Source of the DNA: Salvator merianae
Taxonomy: Eukaryota; Chordata; Lepidosauria; Squamata; Teiidae
DNA: 64,000 bases
Assembly: GCA_003586115.2 (NCBI GenBank)
Contig: QVOM02000101.1
Coordinates: 28,174,139 to 28,238,138 of the forward strand
Direction: 5' to 3'
Every line of letters starts with the position of its first letter. The first letter of the stretch is position 1. The translations under genes were made by a program, and so were the position numbers. Positions 9,228-55,260 of the stretch are shown here, piece after piece. A model generated the notes under the pieces. That model was not told where the DNA came from. It was given only the letters and a program-made list of their open reading frames with translations, and did no database searches.

Positions 9228-10118
9228 GCATGTGATCAAAAACAGTGTTCAATTTATGAAGTGGGAGAGGAAAGTTGTAAGATCAAGAAAAATGTATTTC
9301 ATATTTGGAAAGTATAGAGATACTTATGTAAGTGTAATGAGATGTTAGAAGCATGAAACATCTGGAGAGCAGGAATAAACCTTGGTCTTTACACGCTAAA
9401 TATAAACATGGGTGTGTGTGTAATGATTTACAGCAAAGTTAGAATGTGAGCCAGGGAAAACCACATGACACACAGTAAAATCCTCAAGGCTATATATATT
9501 GATAAATTACATCTTTCAGTTAATAATAAGGAGAAGAAATCTGAAGCTTTAAAGTATACAAGCTTTTAAAGGGATCAGACTGGGTGCTCTGGAAAAGCAA
9601 TTGGTTACAGCTGTATGTCTGTATATAAGCTTATGTTCAGCACAGAACTCAAGATAATGTTCTTGACATTGAAATGCTTACTGGTTTATTTGTTTCATTT
9701 TCAGTGTAGTGCAATAAAATATGTCATTCTTACATTTCTGTGGAATGCAACTGTGGAATGTCCATCTCTCTAAAAGTATAGTTTTTGATTCCAAGGTTTT
9801 CAATTAAATACATTTTGATTCAGGGCTCATTGCTCTTAAAGGCCATATTGATGTGATAATAGTGTAACTATTCCAACTTTTTTTTTTTTAAGACTTTTCT
9901 ATATAGGACTTTTCTGTTTTTGACTTGAACATGTCTTTCAAACTTTCTCATCATAACAAGGATATAACCTTCAAGAAATATCTACAGTGGATTAACTATT
10001 TTTATTTGACAATTTATATTCCTAACTTCCTTAGTGCTTCCAATCTCTTAAAAGAAAAAGGTATCTTAAGGCCATTTTCACATGGCCCAGGCTATTCTGT
10101 GCTGTGCTAGTCTGGCCC
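9228..10118. other. Unannotated stretch
   Basis: AT-rich sequence with no supported gene or repeat. Confidence 0.5.
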
Positions 10119-16130: not shown

Positions 16131-16648
16131 AGATCAGTAAAACATACAGGACTATAAGAAAATTGTACTCCATTTCAGAAGAAGCATGATTTTTTTTTTC
16201 TCATCCTTTTTAAGGAAACAATAAACATTAAATGGCACATAAGACGTGGACACTCCAGGGGTTCTGAACTGTGGGACTGGAAACTCTTACCCATTCATGA
16301 ACCACGAGAAATTAAGGAAATTCTAATACTACTGCAATTTCTATATTTCGGACCCCAATGTGGGTCCTACATATGCATCTACCCAAACCTTATTTGGTGT
16401 ACTTGAGAATACATTAACCTATTACAGCAGAAGGCCAACTAAGAATTTATTTTCACGTCTGCAGGCTCAGAGAAGGTCTCTGTCATTCTCTGGCTTCTTC
16501 ACAAAACTTAAGCATGATTTACTACTTATTTTACTGAACACTGTTCTTCCTTTCTCAACACTAGATCATTTTTGATCCAGATTTTAGTCTTTTTCCATGC
16601 TAAATGATGGAAAGCCTAAATAGGTTGGGGACTCAGACTATAATTATT

Positions 16649-16790
16649 GGGCCTTTCTGCACTTTCTACCTTAGAATGGGATTATTATAGTCCAGCTGCT
16701 CCTGGTACAGCTGTGAAACACTCCACAGCTATACCAGGAGCAGCTGGACTATAATTATACCATTCTAAGGTAGAAAGTGCAGAAAGGCCC
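16649..16790. mobile_element. Near-perfect palindromic fold-back element (142 bp)
   Basis: The two halves are inverted copies of each other. Reading inward from GGGCCTTTCTGCACTTTCT on the left and the complement on the right, only about three positions differ over arms of about 67 bases, leaving a very short loop near 16716-16721. The terminal motif is the clearest example of the Family B/C terminus. Neither a TAA/TTA nor an 8-bp target duplication is obvious. Confidence 0.85.
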
Positions 16791-17108
16791 ATAGTTTCCA
16801 GATTACAACTCAGAATATCTCTGGTGAGTGCTCCTTCCAGTGGAACTGACATGTGATGAGACCCCAGCACATACTGCATTTTTAAGAATGCAATACCTAC
16901 CACACTTATCAGGAAAATATATATTTATGAAAATAGAATACTCAGCAGAGGGGAAAAATTGGAAGAAATACTATAGCTCATTAGAAATGATATGATATTT
17001 AAAAGAGTTACACATTACACTAGAAAACATAGTGCAAGTAGAAGTAGCTTCACTTGTCTCTTATTTTGTTACAACACTCAACCTGGTTGAACTGGAGAGA
17101 ATCACTGC

Positions 17109-17443
17109 TAGGGATGTGCACAAAAAAAATCATTTTCAATTCATTTTCAAATGAAAATCTGTATTTTTGCTTCATCAGAGAATTTCATTGTCGAAAAATG
17201 CATTTTCGTTTTTGTATTTTTCACATTCATTTTCTCATTGCAAGTGCCATTGCAAATGCTATTTTCATGGTTTAAACAGAGCAAAAATTGCAAAAATTAT
17301 ATGATTTTCATTTTTTTGCTAAAGAATAGGCTTTTTTTGTTTTCGTTTGAAAACTGTAAATGCGAAAAAAGCCATATTCATTTTGATGCGAAAATGAAAT
17401 TTCAAATTAATTTTCAAATATGAATCAAATTTGCACATCCCTA
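17109..17443. mobile_element. Family A hAT-type element, copy A2 (335 bp)
   Basis: Starts TAGGGATGTGCAC and ends TTGCACATCCCTA. Flanks are ATCACTGC (17101-17108) and GTCACTGC (17444-17451), an 8-bp target duplication with one mismatch. The interior is AT-rich with repeated CATTTTC/GAAAATG motifs and has no coding capacity. Confidence 0.85.
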
Positions 17444-17451
17444 GTCACTGC

Positions 17452-18063: not shown

Positions 18064-18098
18064 AAAAGAAAGAAAGAAAGAGAGAGAGAGACAGAGAG

Positions 18099-18173
<75 letters not shown>

Positions 18174-18178
18174 GAAAA
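18064..18178. repeat. (GAAA)n microsatellite
   Basis: A long GAAA tetranucleotide array with GA-rich interruptions at its left end. Lys/Glu/Arg and Phe/Leu/Ser frames across it are artefacts. Confidence 0.95.
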
Positions 18179-18429
18179 GTGGTGACAATGCTGACTTCTA
18201 TGGTACAGGTCTGTATTGCATAGTGCTTAGTGCACACAATTCTGTATGTATTCTTCTGGAAACCTGAAATGCTCAAGCTTTTCAGGATCAATGTTAGAAT
18301 CTTTCAGAGGTTATGGACATTGATAATGGGTTTCCATGAGTGTAGAGCCAGGAGTCGGTGTGATGAATCTGCAGCAAAATAATTCAGGATATGAAAATAG
18401 TTCACAGGATATAAATTCAAAAAGTCATG

Positions 18430-20129: not shown

Positions 20130-20566
20130 CTTCCTAAAAAGGGAGAAATACCTAAGATTCTGTAACAGTTGCCTTAAGCATCCTTATGCATACAAGTCAG
20201 TACAAAAACCCCGTATAAATATTAAGTTTAGACATATTCAAAGCATTTGACAGTGTGAATCATTTATATATAACAGTCTTACTAGAAAAAAGAAGAGTAG
20301 GATCTGGATTCCAAGTTCTCAAAAATTCTTACCATGCAAACTATACACAGATCTTAACAAATGAAACACTATTGCATAAAATACCATTTCATAGAGAAAC
20401 CAAACAAGAGTGCCTGCTCTCACCATTACTATTCAAAATTGTAATGGAATCATTTCCCCCCACCCCACAAAAAAAGAAGAAAGAAAGAAAGAAAGGAAGG
20501 AAGGAAGAAAGAAAGAAAGAAAGAAAGGAAGGAAGGAAGGAAGGAAGGAAGGAAGGAAGGAAGGAA

Positions 20567-20636
<70 letters not shown>

Positions 20637-21660
20637 AGATTGAAAGATACACAACTGGTAAAATATACAATACTTAAAATTTATTTGCTAACGATATATT
20701 TTCATTTTTTTTTAAGAAAGAATTATTAAAAATGATTAAAGGTATTAATACAACTTATATACTTTGCCAATAAATTACAAGAAGTTATTAGTAATTACTT
20801 TCAAACCAATAACAGGAAACATAAAGACATATTAAAAATTAAACAAAAAACCTTTTTCTCTGCTGGGCGAAACTGCAGTCAAAGGTATGAAAATTATATT
20901 TTTAAACATGATCTATCTATATACTGGGAAAAACTTTAAATCAGATCTTGGGAGAGCATAATGCATTTATATTTAAAGTTAAACAACTTCATCTTACAAG
21001 GGCTATAAACCATAGAATAGCAAATCAGGGACGGTGGGAAGTATATATATTAATGTGTACTATATAATATTTCAGATAAGCATTAGCATATGACAATAAT
21101 AAATGGAAGAAACTTTAGAAGATATAGTATTTCAAGAATACATGGGGAAAAAAAATAAAAGCTTATCTAAACCAATAGTTAAAAATACTATCATTGTAGG
21201 GTGGAGGGGAATCAAAAGGAAAAACAGTCCCATTCCCATCTCTACTGAGTCCAATTTATACATTGTGAACATTTCCAGTAAATATTGTTCAACAACAATA
21301 AGATAATCTAGCAGCGGTCAAAATCATATGTTTAAAAGACTTCTATAAATCAGATGGGCTTCCCAAAGAAATCAAAACGTTAAAAACACAGCTGGAATCA
21401 TTACAATTTAATCAGCTTGAAAGCTAACAAAGACAGGGATATTTAAATAGAAATGGCATAAAAGAAACAACAGTGAGGAAATTAATGCCTTTTGAAAAAT
21501 TATATGATAATCATAGAATTCCCAAAAGAGGCTTAGTCTCCTTGCTAGATGTCATTTTAAAAGACTCACAGGCTTCCTCACTAGAAGGATTATGAAAATT
21601 ATGGAAGATAGATTTAAGCACAAATATAACAGAAAATGACTGACAAACTCAAAAAATAAA
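20130..21660 (+). pseudogene. L1-type LINE ORF2 fragment, interrupted
   Basis: In the frame at 20255-20455 a segment ending ECLLSPLLFKIVMES matches the L1 reverse-transcriptase block with consensus QGCPLSPLLFN. After the GAAA/GGAA array, LFANDIFS near 20680-20702 sits at the place of the F-A-D-D catalytic block but is altered. Downstream, PIVKNTIIVGW (from about 21170) and PFEKLYDNHRIPKRGL (about 21490) fit the region after the RT domain. Many stops and shifts show it is inactive. Whether 18430-19115 derives from the same insertion is not known; its order argues for a separate copy. Confidence 0.7.
20470..20639. repeat. (GAAA)n/(GGAA)n compound microsatellite
   Basis: About 170 bases of alternating GAAA and GGAA blocks, lying between two L1 reverse-transcriptase motifs. 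Confidence 0.95.
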
Positions 21661-38460: not shown

Positions 38461-39597
38461 TGCTCCACAGCAAGCTGTGATTCGGACCAGCTCTGTCCTG
38501 TTCCCGGTCACACAGGCCTCTGAAAACTGCAAAGTCACTTTGCTAGGAAGTGTCCCTCACACTCACCAACTCAAAGTGCTTTCAGGCCCCAGAACCCTCA
38601 TGTTAGTTCAGGGAAATGTGTGTGGGGGAGTGCTTCTTAAATACTGTGGGCTGTGAGTTTATAGAACTGAACAATTTCTCAGGAAAATTAAAACAGTAAA
38701 ACTGTGAAAAGGAAATAGTTATTTCCTTCCATGGGGAAATTAACATTGGATTAAAAATACAATATAATGATACTTTGGGGAGGGTTATTTTACTTTAAAA
38801 AGAGGGTTGCTTGGTTAATCTTTATGAATGAAGAGTGTTATGGTCTTGAAACATAAAAGCAAAAGTGTCATATTCTCAACTAATAATAGCTACAGTTGCA
38901 TATTCAAATGGAATCTGATTTGATGTTCTTTGTAGTATATAGAAGAAAAGAACTTAAAAAGTGAGGGTAAAAGGAATCAAACTCTCACAACTTAAATCCT
39001 TAAATTGATTATTTCTTCGAGGCAAAAAAACAAAAATCAAAAATTGTCTATGTGGGTGAAAAATTGCATGCAAAGATTCAACCTAAGGGAATCTGCACAC
39101 CCGACTTCAAAATAAAAGCCAATGGCAAAAGTGCTGGCAGTCTTGGCCACTAATACATTCAGGATGATACCCTGACAAACTCCTGCATATATTGCTTACT
39201 AACATACCTTTATTTTTTTCATCAAACCCAACACAGAGATAAAGGGGGGTAAATGATGCAAGATTCAGGAAACGTTTTTGAATAGTAAATTTTACTGGCT
39301 TGTAGGGAAATGTTCCTGACTCAAGCTTCAGAACTGGTGTGCAGCTTGAAGCTGGCACAAGGATCAGAACTGGTGTGCAGCTGGTGCAGGACAGGACATC
39401 CCAATGAGGGTGGCCTTGTCCCACTCCAGAAGCAACACCAGAAGCAGTTTGGCATACACTGAACAATAGACTAAGTCCATAGTATCTCCAAAAACTGACA
39501 GTAGGGCTAACATACTAAGTAAGGATCAGATTTCTAAATTTTCCTAAATTTACCAACAAACTAAAACATTTTTTTTTCCTTTTTCTCTTTTCTCTTT

Positions 39598-39665
<68 letters not shown>

Positions 39666-40500
39666 TTAAAGATAAAGAATATATAAACTTTTACCTTAAA
39701 AATATTTCTGGTGCATACTATTTTTGTGGGAAAACTGTATTATTCTTCACTAGAGTTGTGATAACTTGCTTTAACTTACATTCATTTTAACATTCCACAT
39801 TCTGCTGTGACTTTCTGGCCTTAGAAACAAACAAACAAAAAACCGCAAGTCAATCAGAATGGTAAACTGTTTTATAGCGATAGGAAGCAGTGTGTACATT
39901 TTACAAATATAAGCAATTCAATAGATTTTTGCATATTCTAGCAAGTATCCTTGATGTGCCTCCCAGTCTGAATTTCATACCTGAAGTGTTACATCTACTG
40001 CTGTTTTCACAAATGTGAACCTCTTTTCATTAAAGGAGATTTCCACTGGATTAACCTTCAGCATTTTGGATGTGTCATTTAATCATTGTTGCTCTTTTCC
40101 CTCAATAGAAAAGAGCAAACCTTATGACTATTCTCTTTATATAAGCAATACTATACAAATAATGAAACTTTTCAACTTAAGCAGCAGAATAACACAACAA
40201 TGGTCTTTCAGACCTAGGATCTGAGGTCTTTCTAAACATCTTACCACTACAAAATGAACATGCCCTGTTATCAGACAAATGCCTCGAAGACGATGCATTA
40301 GAAGAATTAACTATTAACTATTTTATTTTTTAATTATGGATTCTTTTTGCTCACAATATGAAATAGCACTAATTATTGTCTATTGTATGGTTTACTTACT
40401 AGAATTAATGACTGACTACTATATAGCTGATAATAAGTTGTACAACATAAGACATTGCAATACTTGGCTTATAACGTACCTGTGTGCTTATTAAAACATA
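38461..40500. other. Unannotated stretch with a CTTT microsatellite
   Basis: Apart from the microsatellite at 39569-39667, no feature is supported. Confidence 0.5.
39569..39667. repeat. (CTTT)n microsatellite
   Basis: A T-rich lead-in followed by about sixteen perfect CTTT units. Confidence 0.95.
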
Positions 40501-40690: not shown

Positions 40691-40772
40691 AGTAGACCTC
40701 AAGGACAATGGATGAAAATGTATAAATAAAATATCTGGTGCTTTGATTTTGAAGCAAAACCCATATGCCAGA

Positions 40773-40777
<5 letters not shown>

Positions 40778-40826
<49 letters not shown>
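40778..40826. repeat. (TA)n microsatellite
   Basis: About 24 TA units. Confidence 0.95.
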
Positions 40827-40830
<4 letters not shown>

Positions 40831-41297
40831 TCTGAAAATTCACTGAAAATTCACTGAAAAACTGAACAGACAAATCTGTTCTACAACAACAACAACAACA
40901 AAAAAAAAAAACCACAAAAAAAATAGGCCTATCCATTTGCAAACTGATAACTAATGCAGACTTCTTTCTTTTCCTTTTCTAAGAACATTCTCCTGCCCCT
41001 CAAACATTTGAAAAATACTAAGTTGGATAAAGTAATAGGATAAGCCACTTATATAGGTAAAAAAGAGAGAGAGGATCTTTAGCTCCCCATCCTATATTAT
41101 TTTGGACATTGTATAAGGTGAAAATAACTTTTGAAACCATTGGAGAAGAACACTGTGGTGAGACATGACATTTCTTACTTTTATTTTAATATAATGCAAT
41201 TTTTAAATTGCTACTTTGCAACCACTTGCATCAAGATTTTTAATATTTATTGAAATAAATACAGAAAGTATATCTTACACAATAATTAGCTTTTGAT

Positions 41298-41841
41298 TAT
41301 GGGTGTGCACGAAGGCACTTTTTCCCTTTCGCTTTGCATTCCTGCGAAGCTACAGGGCTTCATTTTCACACAAAACAATATGTGCGAAAATGAAGCCCTT
41401 CGCTCGCTTCTCTCTCATCCCCCCCCCCCCAGTCTGTCAGTGTGCGCGTGGGACTGACAGACTAGGGGGAATGAGAGACAGCGTGTGGGAGAGGATGGAA
41501 ATCAATGAAATGAAGGGAATCCCTTCCTTTCATTGATTTGCCTTCTCTCCTCTCGCTGCCTGATTCAGCCTACTCTGTCAGTGCGCGCGCTGACCGAGTA
41601 GGGCGAATCAGGCAGCCAGCGGGACATGAGGGAAATCAACGCGCAGGGAGGGATACCCTGTGCGTTGATTTCCCTCCTCTCCCGCATGCTGTCTCTCATT
41701 TCCCCTAGACTGTCAGCGTTTGTGAAGGTCCCAAAATGCATCGAAAATTGAGGGAAAATTTGGTTCCATTCGATGCGAAGGGAACCAAATCATGAAATTT
41801 GACGAAAATTCGAGTGGCACGAAACTTCGTGCACACCCCTA
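41298..41841. mobile_element. Family A hAT-type element, copy A4 (544 bp), with zigzag inverted repeats
   Basis: Starts TATGGGTGTGCACGAAG and ends CTTCGTGCACACCCCTA, an inverted terminal pair. CTTTTGAT lies on both sides (41290-41297 and 41842-41849), an exact 8-bp duplication. Unlike the other copies, the interior (41407-41717) is GC-rich and consists of alternating inverted copies of a ~65-bp unit. A further stem near 41354-41398 has arms GGGCTTCATTTTC and its complement. It has no coding capacity. Confidence 0.88.
41407..41717. repeat. Alternating inverted ~65-bp units (about 4.5 copies)
   Basis: Units lie at about 41407-41441 (partial, reverse), 41453-41519 (forward), 41519-41588 (reverse), 41589-41653 (forward) and 41653-41717 (reverse). 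The unit core reads CTGACAGACTAGGGGGAATG then GAGAGACAGC and a G/A-rich stretch ending GAAATCAATG or GAAATCAACG. Each neighbouring pair can form a hairpin, for example GCTGCCTGATTC (41556-41567) with its complement ending at 41615, and GAGGGAAATCAACG (41628-41641) with its complement ending at 41676. Confidence 0.88.
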
Positions 41842-42054
41842 CTTTTGATGTTTCTTGCAATAATTGGATACTTTCTGCAATACCACTGCATTAGATTGAC
41901 TGACCAGTCACCTCTTCTCTGACACAACTGACTTACTTTGGTAGGCTGGATCTTTGTAGTATTCATAACTCCTACTATTTCATAGGTAACAATCACTCAA
42001 AAAACATAGTTTTGCATAAAGCAGCAGTTGATAGAAGGAAAACCACACCATGAC

Positions 42055-42365
42055 TAGGGATGTGCAAATTTTGATTCGTATTCAAAAATTCGTTCAAAGG
42101 TTCACTTCTGCAAATTTTTGCATCAAAATGAAAATGACTGATTTTACACTTAAGGGTTTCGATTGAAAACAAAAAAGCCGATTTTTCGAATATTCACATC
42201 TTCACACTTTTGCGCTATGTTTAAACTATGAAAATGGCATTTTCAATGGAAAAATGAATGCAAAAAATGCATTTTTTTAATAACGGAATACGCTGATGAA
42301 TTGAAAATTCAGATATTCAATTTGAAAACAAATAAAAAATGATTATTTTTTTGTGCACATCCAGA
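42055..42365. mobile_element. Family A hAT-type element, copy A5 (311 bp)
   Basis: Starts TAGGGATGTGCAAATTTT and ends TTGTGCACATCCAGA, the last bases being mutated. ACCATGAC is found directly outside both ends (42047-42054 and 42366-42373), an exact 8-bp target duplication. The AT-rich interior contains ATTTTTCGAATATTCAC. Confidence 0.87.
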
Positions 42366-47428: not shown

Positions 47429-47430
47429 TC

Positions 47431-47617
47431 CCTCCTTCCTTCCTTCCTTCCTTCCTTCCTTCCTTCCTTCCTTCCTTCCTTCCTTCCTTCCTTCCTTCCT
47501 TCCTTTCTTTTTATTTCCCTATTCCTTCCTTCCTTCCTTCCTTCCTTCCTTCCTTCCTTCCTTCCTTCCTTCCTTCCTTTCCTTCCTTCCTTTCCTTCCT
47601 TCCTTTCCTTCCTTCCT
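47431..47617. repeat. (CCTT)n microsatellite
   Basis: Two long CCTT arrays separated by a short TTTTATTTCCC interruption near 47506-47522. It gives the spurious Gly/Arg/Lys/Glu frame on the minus strand. Confidence 0.95.
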
Positions 47618-52903: not shown

Positions 52904-53049
52904 AACTATGTTTACTTTGTTTTGAATGAATCTGTGTCTCTCAATTCATTTGGAAACTCTGGGTGGGCAGCGTAAAGTTTAATCTGCATTCCCCTTCACA
53001 AACTTTGTGGGCTATTCTATTTCGGAGTTGTGTTTCTGTTTCCTCTAGG

Positions 53050-53170
53050 TTGCCCCTTAGCAGACCGTGGTTGAACTTGTAACAAGGAAAGGTGTGGCCT
53101 GGTTCAAACTGTAGTTGGACAGGAGACCACCTAGAAAGAGCAGATGCTGCTGTAGGTTAGACTGGCCAGT
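53050..53170 (+). mobile_element. Possible 5S-rRNA-related SINE fragment
   Basis: GTGGCCTGGTTCAAACTGTA, then GTTGGACAGGAGACCACC, parallels the 3' half of 5S rRNA (GGCCTGGTTAGTACTTGGATGGGAGACC) in order and spacing. The upstream TTAGCAGACCG loosely fits the TAAGCAGGGT stretch. Several changes rule out a functional 5S gene. SINE fragments with this 5S-like piece are known in squamates. Confidence 0.55.
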
Positions 53171-54520
53171 AGAAAAATATGTCACACATTTTGTAAAATG
53201 TACAGATGATAAAAGCCAAACATAAAAGAAACCAAGATCCCATATCTTGTTCTAAAACATTCAGTTTTATTAAAACAGAAATGGTATGCTTTTACAGAAG
53301 GGTTAGAAAAAGGAAGGAATGCGAACTACAGGACAGTTAGAACAAAATGTATGGCTATCAGTAATCTACTAACTGGGAAGTGTCCGTTCAGAGCAAAAAA
53401 AGAGGGAAAGACAGAAAGCAAGTAAGAGAGGGAGGGAAGGAGGGTGGGTAGTTAGGTACTTCCTTGTTTGTAAAGTTGTCAGTGTGACATCAAAGGAATC
53501 CTGTTCTCACCATGCCTACATATAACTCTGTTCAGGTTAAAGACAAGTCTCTAATGCTCATAGAATGTGCTCTATTGAATTAAATCCCTTGCAGCACTCA
53601 ATAATATTGATAACTTTCTATTGCACCTTTAAAAGCTATGTAGGTAGAAGAGAGAACCCAGGGCCCCCTGAAAATCTTGCCTCACTGTTAAAAATGCAGG
53701 TCCTGGAGCCATGTCCTTTATTCCAACTGACCAATCTCCCTAAAAGCCAATCTCCCTAAAAGCAGAGTTCACACTCACAGTTGTCTCTGCTACCCTTCCT
53801 CGCCATTCCAGTTTACAACTGGCCCTATATCTCAAAATTTCACGTTACACAACAACCATCAAACGGAAAAGTTATTTGTCCAAAAAGAAAACATTCTGAG
53901 CACCTGCAGCTTCACATCTGAGCATCCTAATGATGTATATGTGCTTAGACCACAGGTCTAACAGCTGTGCCAGGGAAATATAGTTATAATGGATTGCTTA
54001 TAGAAGAGAGGGGACGGATGTGTTATTGTGATGAGTTTGACTAGATAGCCTCACAGTGCCCTCTGGGTTCTTGGTGGCTCATGGGGATACCCCTCTGCTC
54101 AGGGTACACTGGCTGGAAGGGACTGTTTCATATGGAGGCAATGTCTCCTCCTCACCTGTTGATGTGTTGTCCACCTCAGCCAAGGCCTCAGATTGGTACT
54201 GGCCCTATGGTGTGGACCCTGCAGGTGCTGGCCCAGGGCACTGAGCGTACCCCATGTCATCATCGGCCTGGCATCCTTGGTGTGTACGTGCGTGTGTGCA
54301 TGCATGCATGCATGAGTGCTCACACAGAATGCACATTACCTCTCCCCTCCCTACCTATTTTCCCCCCTTTCCTTTCCTTGTGTTCATTTTTAAAGATCCT
54401 ACTCTAATTTCACCTTTATTCAGTATATCCTGTGTGTATGCCCCTTACTTTGTGGCTCTCTTGTTTTTCATTTTTGTGCTGCTTTTGTGCTTCTTCTTAT
54501 TTTCTTTTGGATTTATTGGC
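53171..54520. other. Unannotated stretch between convergent gene remnants
   Basis: No exon or repeat recognised. A short TGCA/ATGC run lies at 54298-54314. Confidence 0.45.
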
Positions 54521-54524
54521 CCAT

Positions 54525-55260
54525 CTAGTCCTTCTTTTGTTTTTTTTCCAGCTGCCTCTGGTGCTGCGGGATTGGGATGGAGTCACCCATGGCCTGATCA
54601 CTCATCCCCCAAGTCAGCTCGGGAAAGCCTAGCAGGGGCAGGGTGGCCGTTAAGAAGACAAGCTGCTCCACAAACTGCCCGCCCATGTGAGAGCGATGAG
54701 ATGTCACCACGTCACCAGCCATGGAGAACACCCTCTCACTCTGCACAGATGTCGGTGGAGCTGACAGGTACTTCCGGGCAAGAGCTTCCAAATCCAGCCA
54801 GATTTAGCAATGCTTTGCCCAAAACTTGGATGGCACTGTGTCCTCACCTCCCACTTCCCCCGCTAGATACTGCAGAATGGACTGCTCAGCACTATCGACG
54901 GAAGTTGGTTTCTGCCGTTTCATGGACATGTCACTGAAGCTGAAAACCTCAAACTCCATGTCACATAGTGCCTCCTGGCACTCTTCATGACTTGCCTCCG
55001 AAACCGCACTGCTGGGCTGACTGCTAATGCTAGCCACAGGAGAACTTCCACCACTGGAAGCGGGGGACGCACTGCGAACAGGTGCTCCTCCACTCTCCCA
55101 TGCCTGGGCCCCCAACTTCTCTGCCTGAACTCACCTTGCTGCTTGGACCAGGCACTCTCTCCACCGAGGAAGCTCGTCCGCAGGGACCGCTCCCTCCCGA
55201 ACCCTTGGGTCAAGCTTGCACCAGCTGCCTGCACCTTTTCAGTGTGGTTGGCTACTATGA
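54525..55260 (-). pseudogene. hAT-superfamily transposase, C-terminal part
   Basis: On the minus strand the frame 54791 to 54525 encodes LARKYLSAPPTSVQSERVFS followed by MAGDVVTSHRS and QLVFLT, the hAT C-terminal dimerisation domain (pattern L-A-x-x-Y-L-S-x-P-x-T-S-x-x-S-E-R-x-F-S-x-A-G). The same frame continues upstream past one TAA (plus-strand 54804-54806) with KFWAKHC and a Ser/Pro/Glu-rich linker to about 55115. Farther upstream another frame encodes ANHTEKVQAAGASLTQGFG and ends at a donor-like AAG/GTGAGT (exon edge at 55135), suggesting the gene was spliced. The N-terminal zinc finger and catalytic core were not found. A ZBED-like domesticated gene is an alternative, but the stop argues for a dead transposon. 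Confidence 0.8.

What the first reader, a model, noticed from the sequence alone, without database searches (positions are those of the whole stretch)
41407..41717. Zigzag of alternating inverted ~65-bp units inside a hAT element
Copy A4 carries about 4.5 copies of a ~65-bp GC-rich unit in strictly alternating orientation (reverse-partial, forward, reverse, forward, reverse). Tandem direct repeats are common, but serial head-to-head/tail-to-tail arrays are not. Each adjacent pair can fold as a hairpin, and outer copies can also pair (about 41454-41495 with 41675-41717), so a single strand could adopt rival cruciform or multi-hairpin forms. The other Family A copies in this window lack it. It may record repeated template switching or hairpin-primed repair during transposition.
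Basis: partly seen in the sequence, partly recalled or inferred. Interest (0 to 1): 0.75.

Follow-up and report, generated by a model that had tools for sequence, protein, structure and literature searches.

The report
Jumping DNA built from hairpin chains
The zigzag is what remains, in one shortened copy, of a chain of hairpins found across a common kind of small jumping DNA in this genome, and in some of its subfamilies the number of hairpins differs from copy to copy in whole-hairpin steps.

Summary
Confirmed: 41407-41717 holds about 4.5 copies of a ~67-bp unit in alternating orientation, inside a 544-bp hAT-type MITE with a 17-bp terminal inverted repeat (16/17) and a perfect 8-bp target duplication. 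It is not peculiar to this copy. The element's 5' 21-mer occurs at 9,728 places in the genome with up to two mismatches. Of 40 such places taken in list order, 34 have a matching 3' end within 1.4 kb, and 33 of these 34 show at least five hairpin centres. The zigzag is a direct tandem array whose module is itself a palindrome (about 135 or 88 bp). In two subfamilies many copies differ by whole 88-bp modules (691/779/867/955/1043 bp, 23 of 38 copies; 640 to 1342 bp, 9 of 10 copies). Repeats resemble each other more as direct copies than as hairpin arms there, so those arrays grew by duplicating whole hairpins, not arm by arm. A4 lacks 92, 37, 12 and 15 bp of the consensus; its 92-bp junction has no other exact match. 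Tandem-repeat MITEs are known; this hairpin-chain form looks like a new variant. No autonomous partner was found.

The parts
41290..41297 (.). 8-bp target site duplication, left copy (CTTTTGAT)
   Evidence: identical to 41842-41849
41842..41849 (.). 8-bp target site duplication, right copy
41298..41841 (+). A4, a 544-bp non-autonomous hAT-type MITE
   Evidence: TIR and TSD; 93.4% to the 700-bp consensus of 36 related copies, gaps left out
41298..41314 (+). 5' terminal inverted repeat, 17 bp
   Evidence: 16/17 complementary to 41825-41841 (I7)
41825..41841 (-). 3' terminal inverted repeat, 17 bp
41354..41399 (+). hairpin H1 of the family (19-bp arms, 8-nt loop)
   Evidence: I6; consensus H1 at 54-103
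41400..41401 (.). junction where A4 lacks consensus 104-195 (92 bp, hairpins H2 and H3)
   Evidence: the 20-mer across it has one exact match in the genome
41407..41446 (-). U0, partial unit, reverse
   Evidence: pairs with U1 (41425-41441 with 41453-41469, I8)
41448..41518 (+). U1, forward unit
41520..41585 (-). U2, reverse unit
41586..41652 (+). U3, forward unit
41653..41717 (-). U4, reverse unit
41718..41719 (.). junction where A4 lacks consensus 513-549 (37 bp, closing half-unit)
41758..41790 (+). shortened remnant of the last hairpin (H10)
   Evidence: I9; A4 lacks consensus 587-598 and 607-621, exact placing depends on the alignment

Best explanation
A4 is a shortened copy of an abundant hAT-type MITE family whose members are chains of hairpins. 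The units alternate because the repeated module is a palindrome: a direct tandem array of palindromes reads forward-reverse-forward-reverse. Shown: the array is a family property; in two subfamilies many copies differ by whole 88-bp modules; the variants sit at separate insertion sites; A4 lacks two hairpins, the closing half-unit and part of the last hairpin. Inferred: module number changed by slippage, unequal exchange or gap-repair errors between direct copies in source elements; the variants then spread by cut-and-paste transposition with a hAT transposase supplied elsewhere; the hairpins first arose by local inverted duplication.
For: Structure: 36 related copies give a 700-bp consensus with ten hairpins end to end, -307 kcal/mol against -116 +/- 6 for 20 shuffles. 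Spread: 9,728 5' ends at up to two mismatches, reversed control 0; 34 of 40 sampled ends closed by a 3' end, 31 with TSD 8/8 and 2 with 7/8; 33 of 34 with at least five hairpin centres, mean 10.0 against 0.04 in block-shuffled copies and 0.68 in random window segments. Whole-module steps: 23 of 38 fetched copies fall within 5 bp of 691, 779, 867, 955 or 1043 bp, and 122 of 135 forward-to-forward spacings are 85-89 or 131-138 bp; 73 of 79 rows have an even number of arms. Second ladder: nine of ten copies of one subfamily lie within 4 bp of 640+88n, from 640 to 1342 bp; TRF finds 9.5 copies of 88 bp at 98% in the longest. Direct duplication: same arm of different hairpins 0.79 identical against 0.685 within a hairpin, left turns 0.90 against 0.78; lag-88 identity 0.88-1.00 in 11 of 12 arrays long enough to test, against 0.49-0.62 for the best ungapped reverse complement.
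Against: 15 of 38 copies are off the first ladder, three or more of them with ends that could not be placed, and 13 of 135 spacings fit neither module size. Six of 79 rows have odd arm numbers: four carry one weak hit in hairpin H3, two are 5'-shortened. In the position sample the unit profile detects strictly alternating arms in only part of the copies (16 of 40 no arm, several only reverse arms), so alternation there rests on symmetry centres. In subfamily A the arms of a hairpin agree more than arms of different hairpins (0.77 against 0.53, inflated by the divergent H3), which plain duplication does not explain. No transposase with this TIR was found.
Confidence: 0.8

Rival explanations
1. 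Arm-by-arm growth: each unit was copied from its neighbour by template switching or hairpin-primed repair during transposition, so the array records a series of fold-back events.
For: Adjacent arms pair well in A4 and in subfamily A. Hairpins of different subfamilies differ in concert in both arms: 155 concerted comparisons against 40.6 +/- 23 when 3' arms are re-dealt, 0 of 2000 reach it. Template switching is known to create and mend hairpin stems (PMC8794818, abstract and opening read).
Against: In the expanding subfamilies direct copies are more alike than hairpin arms, steps are mostly whole modules and arm numbers mostly even. Concerted differences are also expected if hairpins share descent; 173 one-arm and 58 non-pairing differences stand beside the 155.
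Confidence: 0.1
2. The hairpin chain is kept by selection because it works for the element: repeated transposase-binding sites, a structure that helps excision or replication, or an RNA role such as small-RNA output.
For: 33 of 34 sampled copies in several subfamilies are rich in hairpins although subfamily consensuses A and C are only 83% alike over their first ~360 bp. For foldback elements it has been proposed that internal repeats add transposase-binding sites (PMC4079207, passages read).
Against: In the 88-bp subfamily the arms have drifted apart while direct copies stay near-identical, so perfect stems are not needed for spread. No binding, expression or mobility data are on hand.
Confidence: 0.25
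3. The array is an assembly artefact.
For: One related locus, L084, is a 2,446-bp palindrome (98.1%) whose right end abuts a 295-base run of N, which does look like an artefact.
Against: Arrays recur in copies on many contigs with their own TSDs: 8/8 in 30 of 39, 24 of 38 and 31 of 34 copies of three sets.
Confidence: 0.01

Closest known systems
MITEs with internal tandem arrays: miDNA4 and Xstir of Xenopus (as told in the review PMC12628747, passages read); clam MITEs of Satovic and Plohl 2013 (seen only in that review's reference list; paper not held)
   Same: A non-autonomous DNA transposon with an internal array whose copy number varies between insertions.
   Different: miDNA4 is a Tc1/mariner MITE by that review; here the ends are hAT-type, the module is a palindrome, and hairpins continue outside the array to near both ends. 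Whether those arrays have palindromic units was not checked.
Foldback-type elements: Tetris (PMC4079207) and Tm1 (PMC3169594), passages read
   Same: Variable-number repeats and strong folding within a transposon.
   Different: There the repeats lie in long terminal inverted repeats; here the TIR is 17 bp and the repeats are internal, each module being its own hairpin.
Angel MITE of zebrafish (as told in PMC12628747)
   Same: A MITE whose single strand folds on itself, with an amplification model through a stem-loop.
   Different: No chain of hairpins or variable array is described in the passages read.
Bacterial REP/BIME arrays (recalled; PMC3733652 seen only in the listing)
   Same: Palindromic units in alternating orientation and variable number (recalled).
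   Different: Bacterial, short and intergenic, not inside a TIR/TSD transposon (recalled).

Membership tests
hAT superfamily, non-autonomous (MITE) | 8-bp target site duplication | tested here: met
   A4 8/8; 8/8 in 30 of 39, 24 of 38 and 31 of 34 related copies
hAT superfamily, non-autonomous (MITE) | short terminal inverted repeats | tested here: met
   17 bp, 16/17 in A4; 17/17 in the consensus
hAT superfamily, non-autonomous (MITE) | mobilised by a hAT transposase that shares its ends | tested here: inconclusive
   150 hAT-domain places scored of 933 candidates; 7 loci of 4.5 kb read, none holds the TIR at up to 3-4 mismatches; element ends may lie outside some stretches
MITE with internal tandem repeats | internal array with copy number varying between insertions | tested here: met
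Foldback elements | long terminal inverted repeats made of direct subrepeats | tested here: not met
   TIR is 17 bp; repeats are internal and palindromic

The most novel reading that the evidence does not exclude
Stem pairing is renewed only while the element moves: hairpin arms change in concert in source lineages but not in excess after insertion, so hairpin-templated repair or replication would be a step of the transposition cycle and the hairpin chain a working part of the element.
Probability: 0.12. Interest if true: 0.75.

Novelty: new variant of a known kind. Interest (0 to 1): 0.5.

Why it matters
A family with thousands of 5' ends, some of whose subfamilies form ladders of hairpin number, is a natural experiment on how palindromic repeats, usually thought unstable (recalled), grow and survive. 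It also lets one ask whether hairpin stems are mended in moving elements only. Such arrays can trouble assemblies (L084 may be a case) and could seed palindromic satellites.

Tried and rejected
Assembly artefact: rejected for the family, likely for L084. Copy-specific event: rejected for the array; A4's 92-bp deletion does look private (three places at up to two mismatches, one exact; reversed control one). Tree-like history of the units: A4's own units show two conflicting splits, 4 sites {U1,U4|U2,U3} and 6 sites {U1,U2|U3,U4}, none for {U1,U3|U2,U4}; with consensus units it is 6, 1 and 0 substitutions, plus one gap column for the third, and the tip alignment is unsure, so I do not build on it. 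Alternation with short motifs gave breaks in 29 of 79 rows because diverged arms were missed; a profile replaced it (4 of 79). Post-insertion concerted change: see full report; the non-pairing double changes exceed expectation more than the pairing ones, which speaks against mending in resident copies. Sampling: searches return the best-scoring 40 of 3,030 and 4,455 candidates and are biased; one search lists 100 of 9,728 places, of which I took 40 (first 20 of 30 on C1, first 20 of 69 on C8), all exact 5' ends; one of them, L116, is the same copy as L035. L048 was left out of the alignment, and A4, L046 and L047 out of its consensus. Phages: no match. Viral contigs: two 16-mer matches, not followed up. 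Papers holding the TIR 13-mers: two, on other subjects by title. Searches for such arrays listed nothing that fits by title and start of abstract; two searches found no paper at all. Repbase and Dfam were not available, so the family may be catalogued there. The species was not identified; CpG depletion in the window (observed/expected 0.19) and the genome size suggest a vertebrate (inference).

Full report
What was checked. The segment holds about 4.5 units of ~67 bp in alternating orientation with symmetry centres near 41447, 41519, 41585/6 and 41652. It folds far better than dinucleotide shuffles (z = -18). The host element runs from 41298 to 41841 with a 17-bp TIR (16/17) and a perfect 8-bp TSD, CTTTTGAT.

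Family context. The window lies in a 2.05-Gb assembly of 1,816 contigs. A search with A4 scored 40 of 3,030 candidates; in many of them about 75-95 bp of extra sequence lies between A4 positions 104 and 105. I fetched the 39 other copies (two given wider flanks because the 5' part was not listed). Thirty-six of them, 687-707 bp long, gave a 700-bp consensus; 35 are 94-97% identical to it and one (L039) 86%, gaps left out. Segment by segment the consensus folds into ten hairpins end to end; as a whole it folds at -307 kcal/mol against -116 +/- 6 for 20 shuffles. Aligned to it, A4 lacks 104-195 (two hairpins), 513-549 (the closing half-unit), 587-598 and 607-621; the last two depend on the alignment. 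The 20-mer over the 92-bp junction has one exact match in the genome, A4 itself, and two matches with two mismatches, against one for the reversed control. So that deletion looks private to A4.

Variable arrays. L046 and L047 differ in array structure. A search with L046 scored 40 of 4,455 candidates and showed matches recurring every 88 bp. I fetched 38 more copies. Of these, 23 fall within 5 bp of 691, 779, 867, 955 or 1043 bp (8, 3, 5, 4 and 3 copies; L055 among the five at 867 has no confirmed 3' end), and 15 do not (644 to 1094 bp; the ends of L064, L068, L070 and L084 are not confirmed). Consensuses of four of these classes are exactly 691, 867, 955 and 1043 bp (8, 5, 4 and 3 copies). 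Of 135 forward-to-forward spacings, 55 are 85-89 bp, 67 are 131-138 bp and 13 are others from 73 to 205 bp (L067, L068 and L084 left out). With a unit profile 75 of 79 rows (78 copies plus the consensus) alternate without a break; the other four have a single 4-5-bit hit in hairpin H3. Arm number is even in 73 of 79 rows; the odd ones are those four and two 5'-shortened copies, L067 and L068.

Position sample. The 5' 21-mer with up to two mismatches occurs 9,728 times (4,887 and 4,841 by strand), the reversed pattern 0 times. I fetched 40 of the 100 listed places. Thirty-four have a 3' end within 1.4 kb, 31 with TSD 8/8 and two with 7/8; L101 has 4/8. Lengths run from 410 to 1342 bp. All 34 have at least two hairpin centres and 33 at least five (L098 has two); the mean is 10.0 against 0.04 in block-shuffled copies (three shuffles each) and 0.68 in random window segments. 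The count of 38 in L101 comes from a closely spaced run that I take for a simple repeat. By the unit profile at 8 bits, 16 of the 40 show no arm and several show reverse arms only, because their arms have diverged from the profile; there the claim rests on symmetry centres and on lag identity. One subfamily forms a second ladder: L108 640, L100 727, L103, L118 and L099 815-817, L119 and L092 1079-1080, L122 1168, L123 1342; the tenth, L120, is 1072, eight short. Two copies of another subfamily, L104 and L121, also fall on 640+88n, which I take for chance. TRF gives 9.5 copies of 88 bp at 98% in L123.

How the array grows. In the 88-bp subfamily of L046 corresponding arms of different tip hairpins are 0.79 identical, the two arms of one hairpin 0.685, opposite arms of different hairpins 0.64; for left turns the values are 0.90, 0.78 and 0.81. 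In the position sample lag-88 identity is 0.88-1.00 in 11 of 12 arrays (0.65 in L122; L108 is too short to test), against 0.49-0.62 for the best ungapped reverse-complement register, a figure that gaps would lower. This is direct duplication of whole palindromes. Modules with the same ordinal in different elements (0.935, 471 pairs) are about as alike as modules within an element (0.918, 47 pairs), and different ordinals in different elements a little less (0.907, 967 pairs). Expansion therefore mostly predates insertion and was inherited from source elements (inference).

Concerted arms. In subfamily A the two arms of a hairpin agree more than arms of different hairpins (0.77 against 0.53), in part because H3 is divergent. 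Across eight consensus hairpins of the subfamilies 155 comparisons are concerted, 173 differ in one arm only and 58 in both without pairing; re-dealing the 3' arms gives 40.6 +/- 23 concerted, largest 134, none of 2000 reaching 155. Hairpins share descent, so this shows association and not mechanism. In 36 inserted copies (5.2% divergence, 266 pairs) paired double changes are 46 against 32.7 expected (0 of 300 permutations reach it), but 14 are one pair, 443-449, shared by 14 copies, probably inherited. Without it they are 32 against 27.4 +/- 4.3, reached by 53 of 300. Non-pairing double changes are 37 against 16.1 +/- 3.0, a stronger excess. Of the 46 paired changes 25 are at CpG sites. So these resident copies give no sign that stems are mended after insertion, within the power of the sample.

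Partner. hAT-domain frames are abundant: 150 scored of 933 candidates, many with an open frame of about 855 aa. Seven loci were read; none holds the TIR. The partner remains unknown.

Known kinds. MITEs with internal tandem arrays and foldback elements with variable repeats are in print (PMC12628747, PMC4079207, PMC3169594, passages read). Template switching as a maker and mender of hairpins is in print too (PMC8794818, abstract and opening). My searches listed no element built of hairpins with a palindromic variable-number array, judged by title and start of abstract in an open-access library only.

Verdict. Real, shared across the family, and explained in outline as a tandem array of palindromes. 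Interest is moderate: architecture and ladders are unusual, the growth mechanism is probably ordinary, and why the chain exists is open.

Noticed in passing
window 16648-16791: A 144-bp near-perfect palindrome (91.7% to its own reverse complement, no CpG), unlike A4; perhaps another small hairpin element.
   Followed up: no
window 40769-40834: A TA-dinucleotide run shows up as a 66-bp palindrome; a simple repeat.
   Followed up: yes
window 52928-55211: Similar (76-93% in pieces, 80.7% over the longest) to L130, which carries an 855-aa open frame with a hAT dimerisation domain; the window holds decayed pieces of that repeat.
   Followed up: partly
window 42051-42362 and 17112-17447: Two copies, 69.5% alike in inverse orientation, of another short element with a related TIR; one lies about 200 bp from A4.
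   Followed up: no
window 18065-18179, 20472-20647, 39571-39668, 47429-47617: Several long arrays that match one another, purine-rich on one strand by their translation; simple-sequence arrays.
   Followed up: no
L084 with L088 and L089 (G000:C1814, about 232397-234842): A 2,446-bp palindrome (98.1%) centred in a copy of this MITE, its right end abutting a 295-base run of N; probably an assembly artefact, possibly a real fold-back duplication.
   Followed up: partly
L107: No 3' end found in the fetched 1.4 kb while 16 arm hits run through it; the array may be much longer, towards a satellite.
   Followed up: no
L101: A copy of this family with a closely spaced run of symmetry centres at about 444-962, probably a simple repeat grown inside the MITE.
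   Followed up: no
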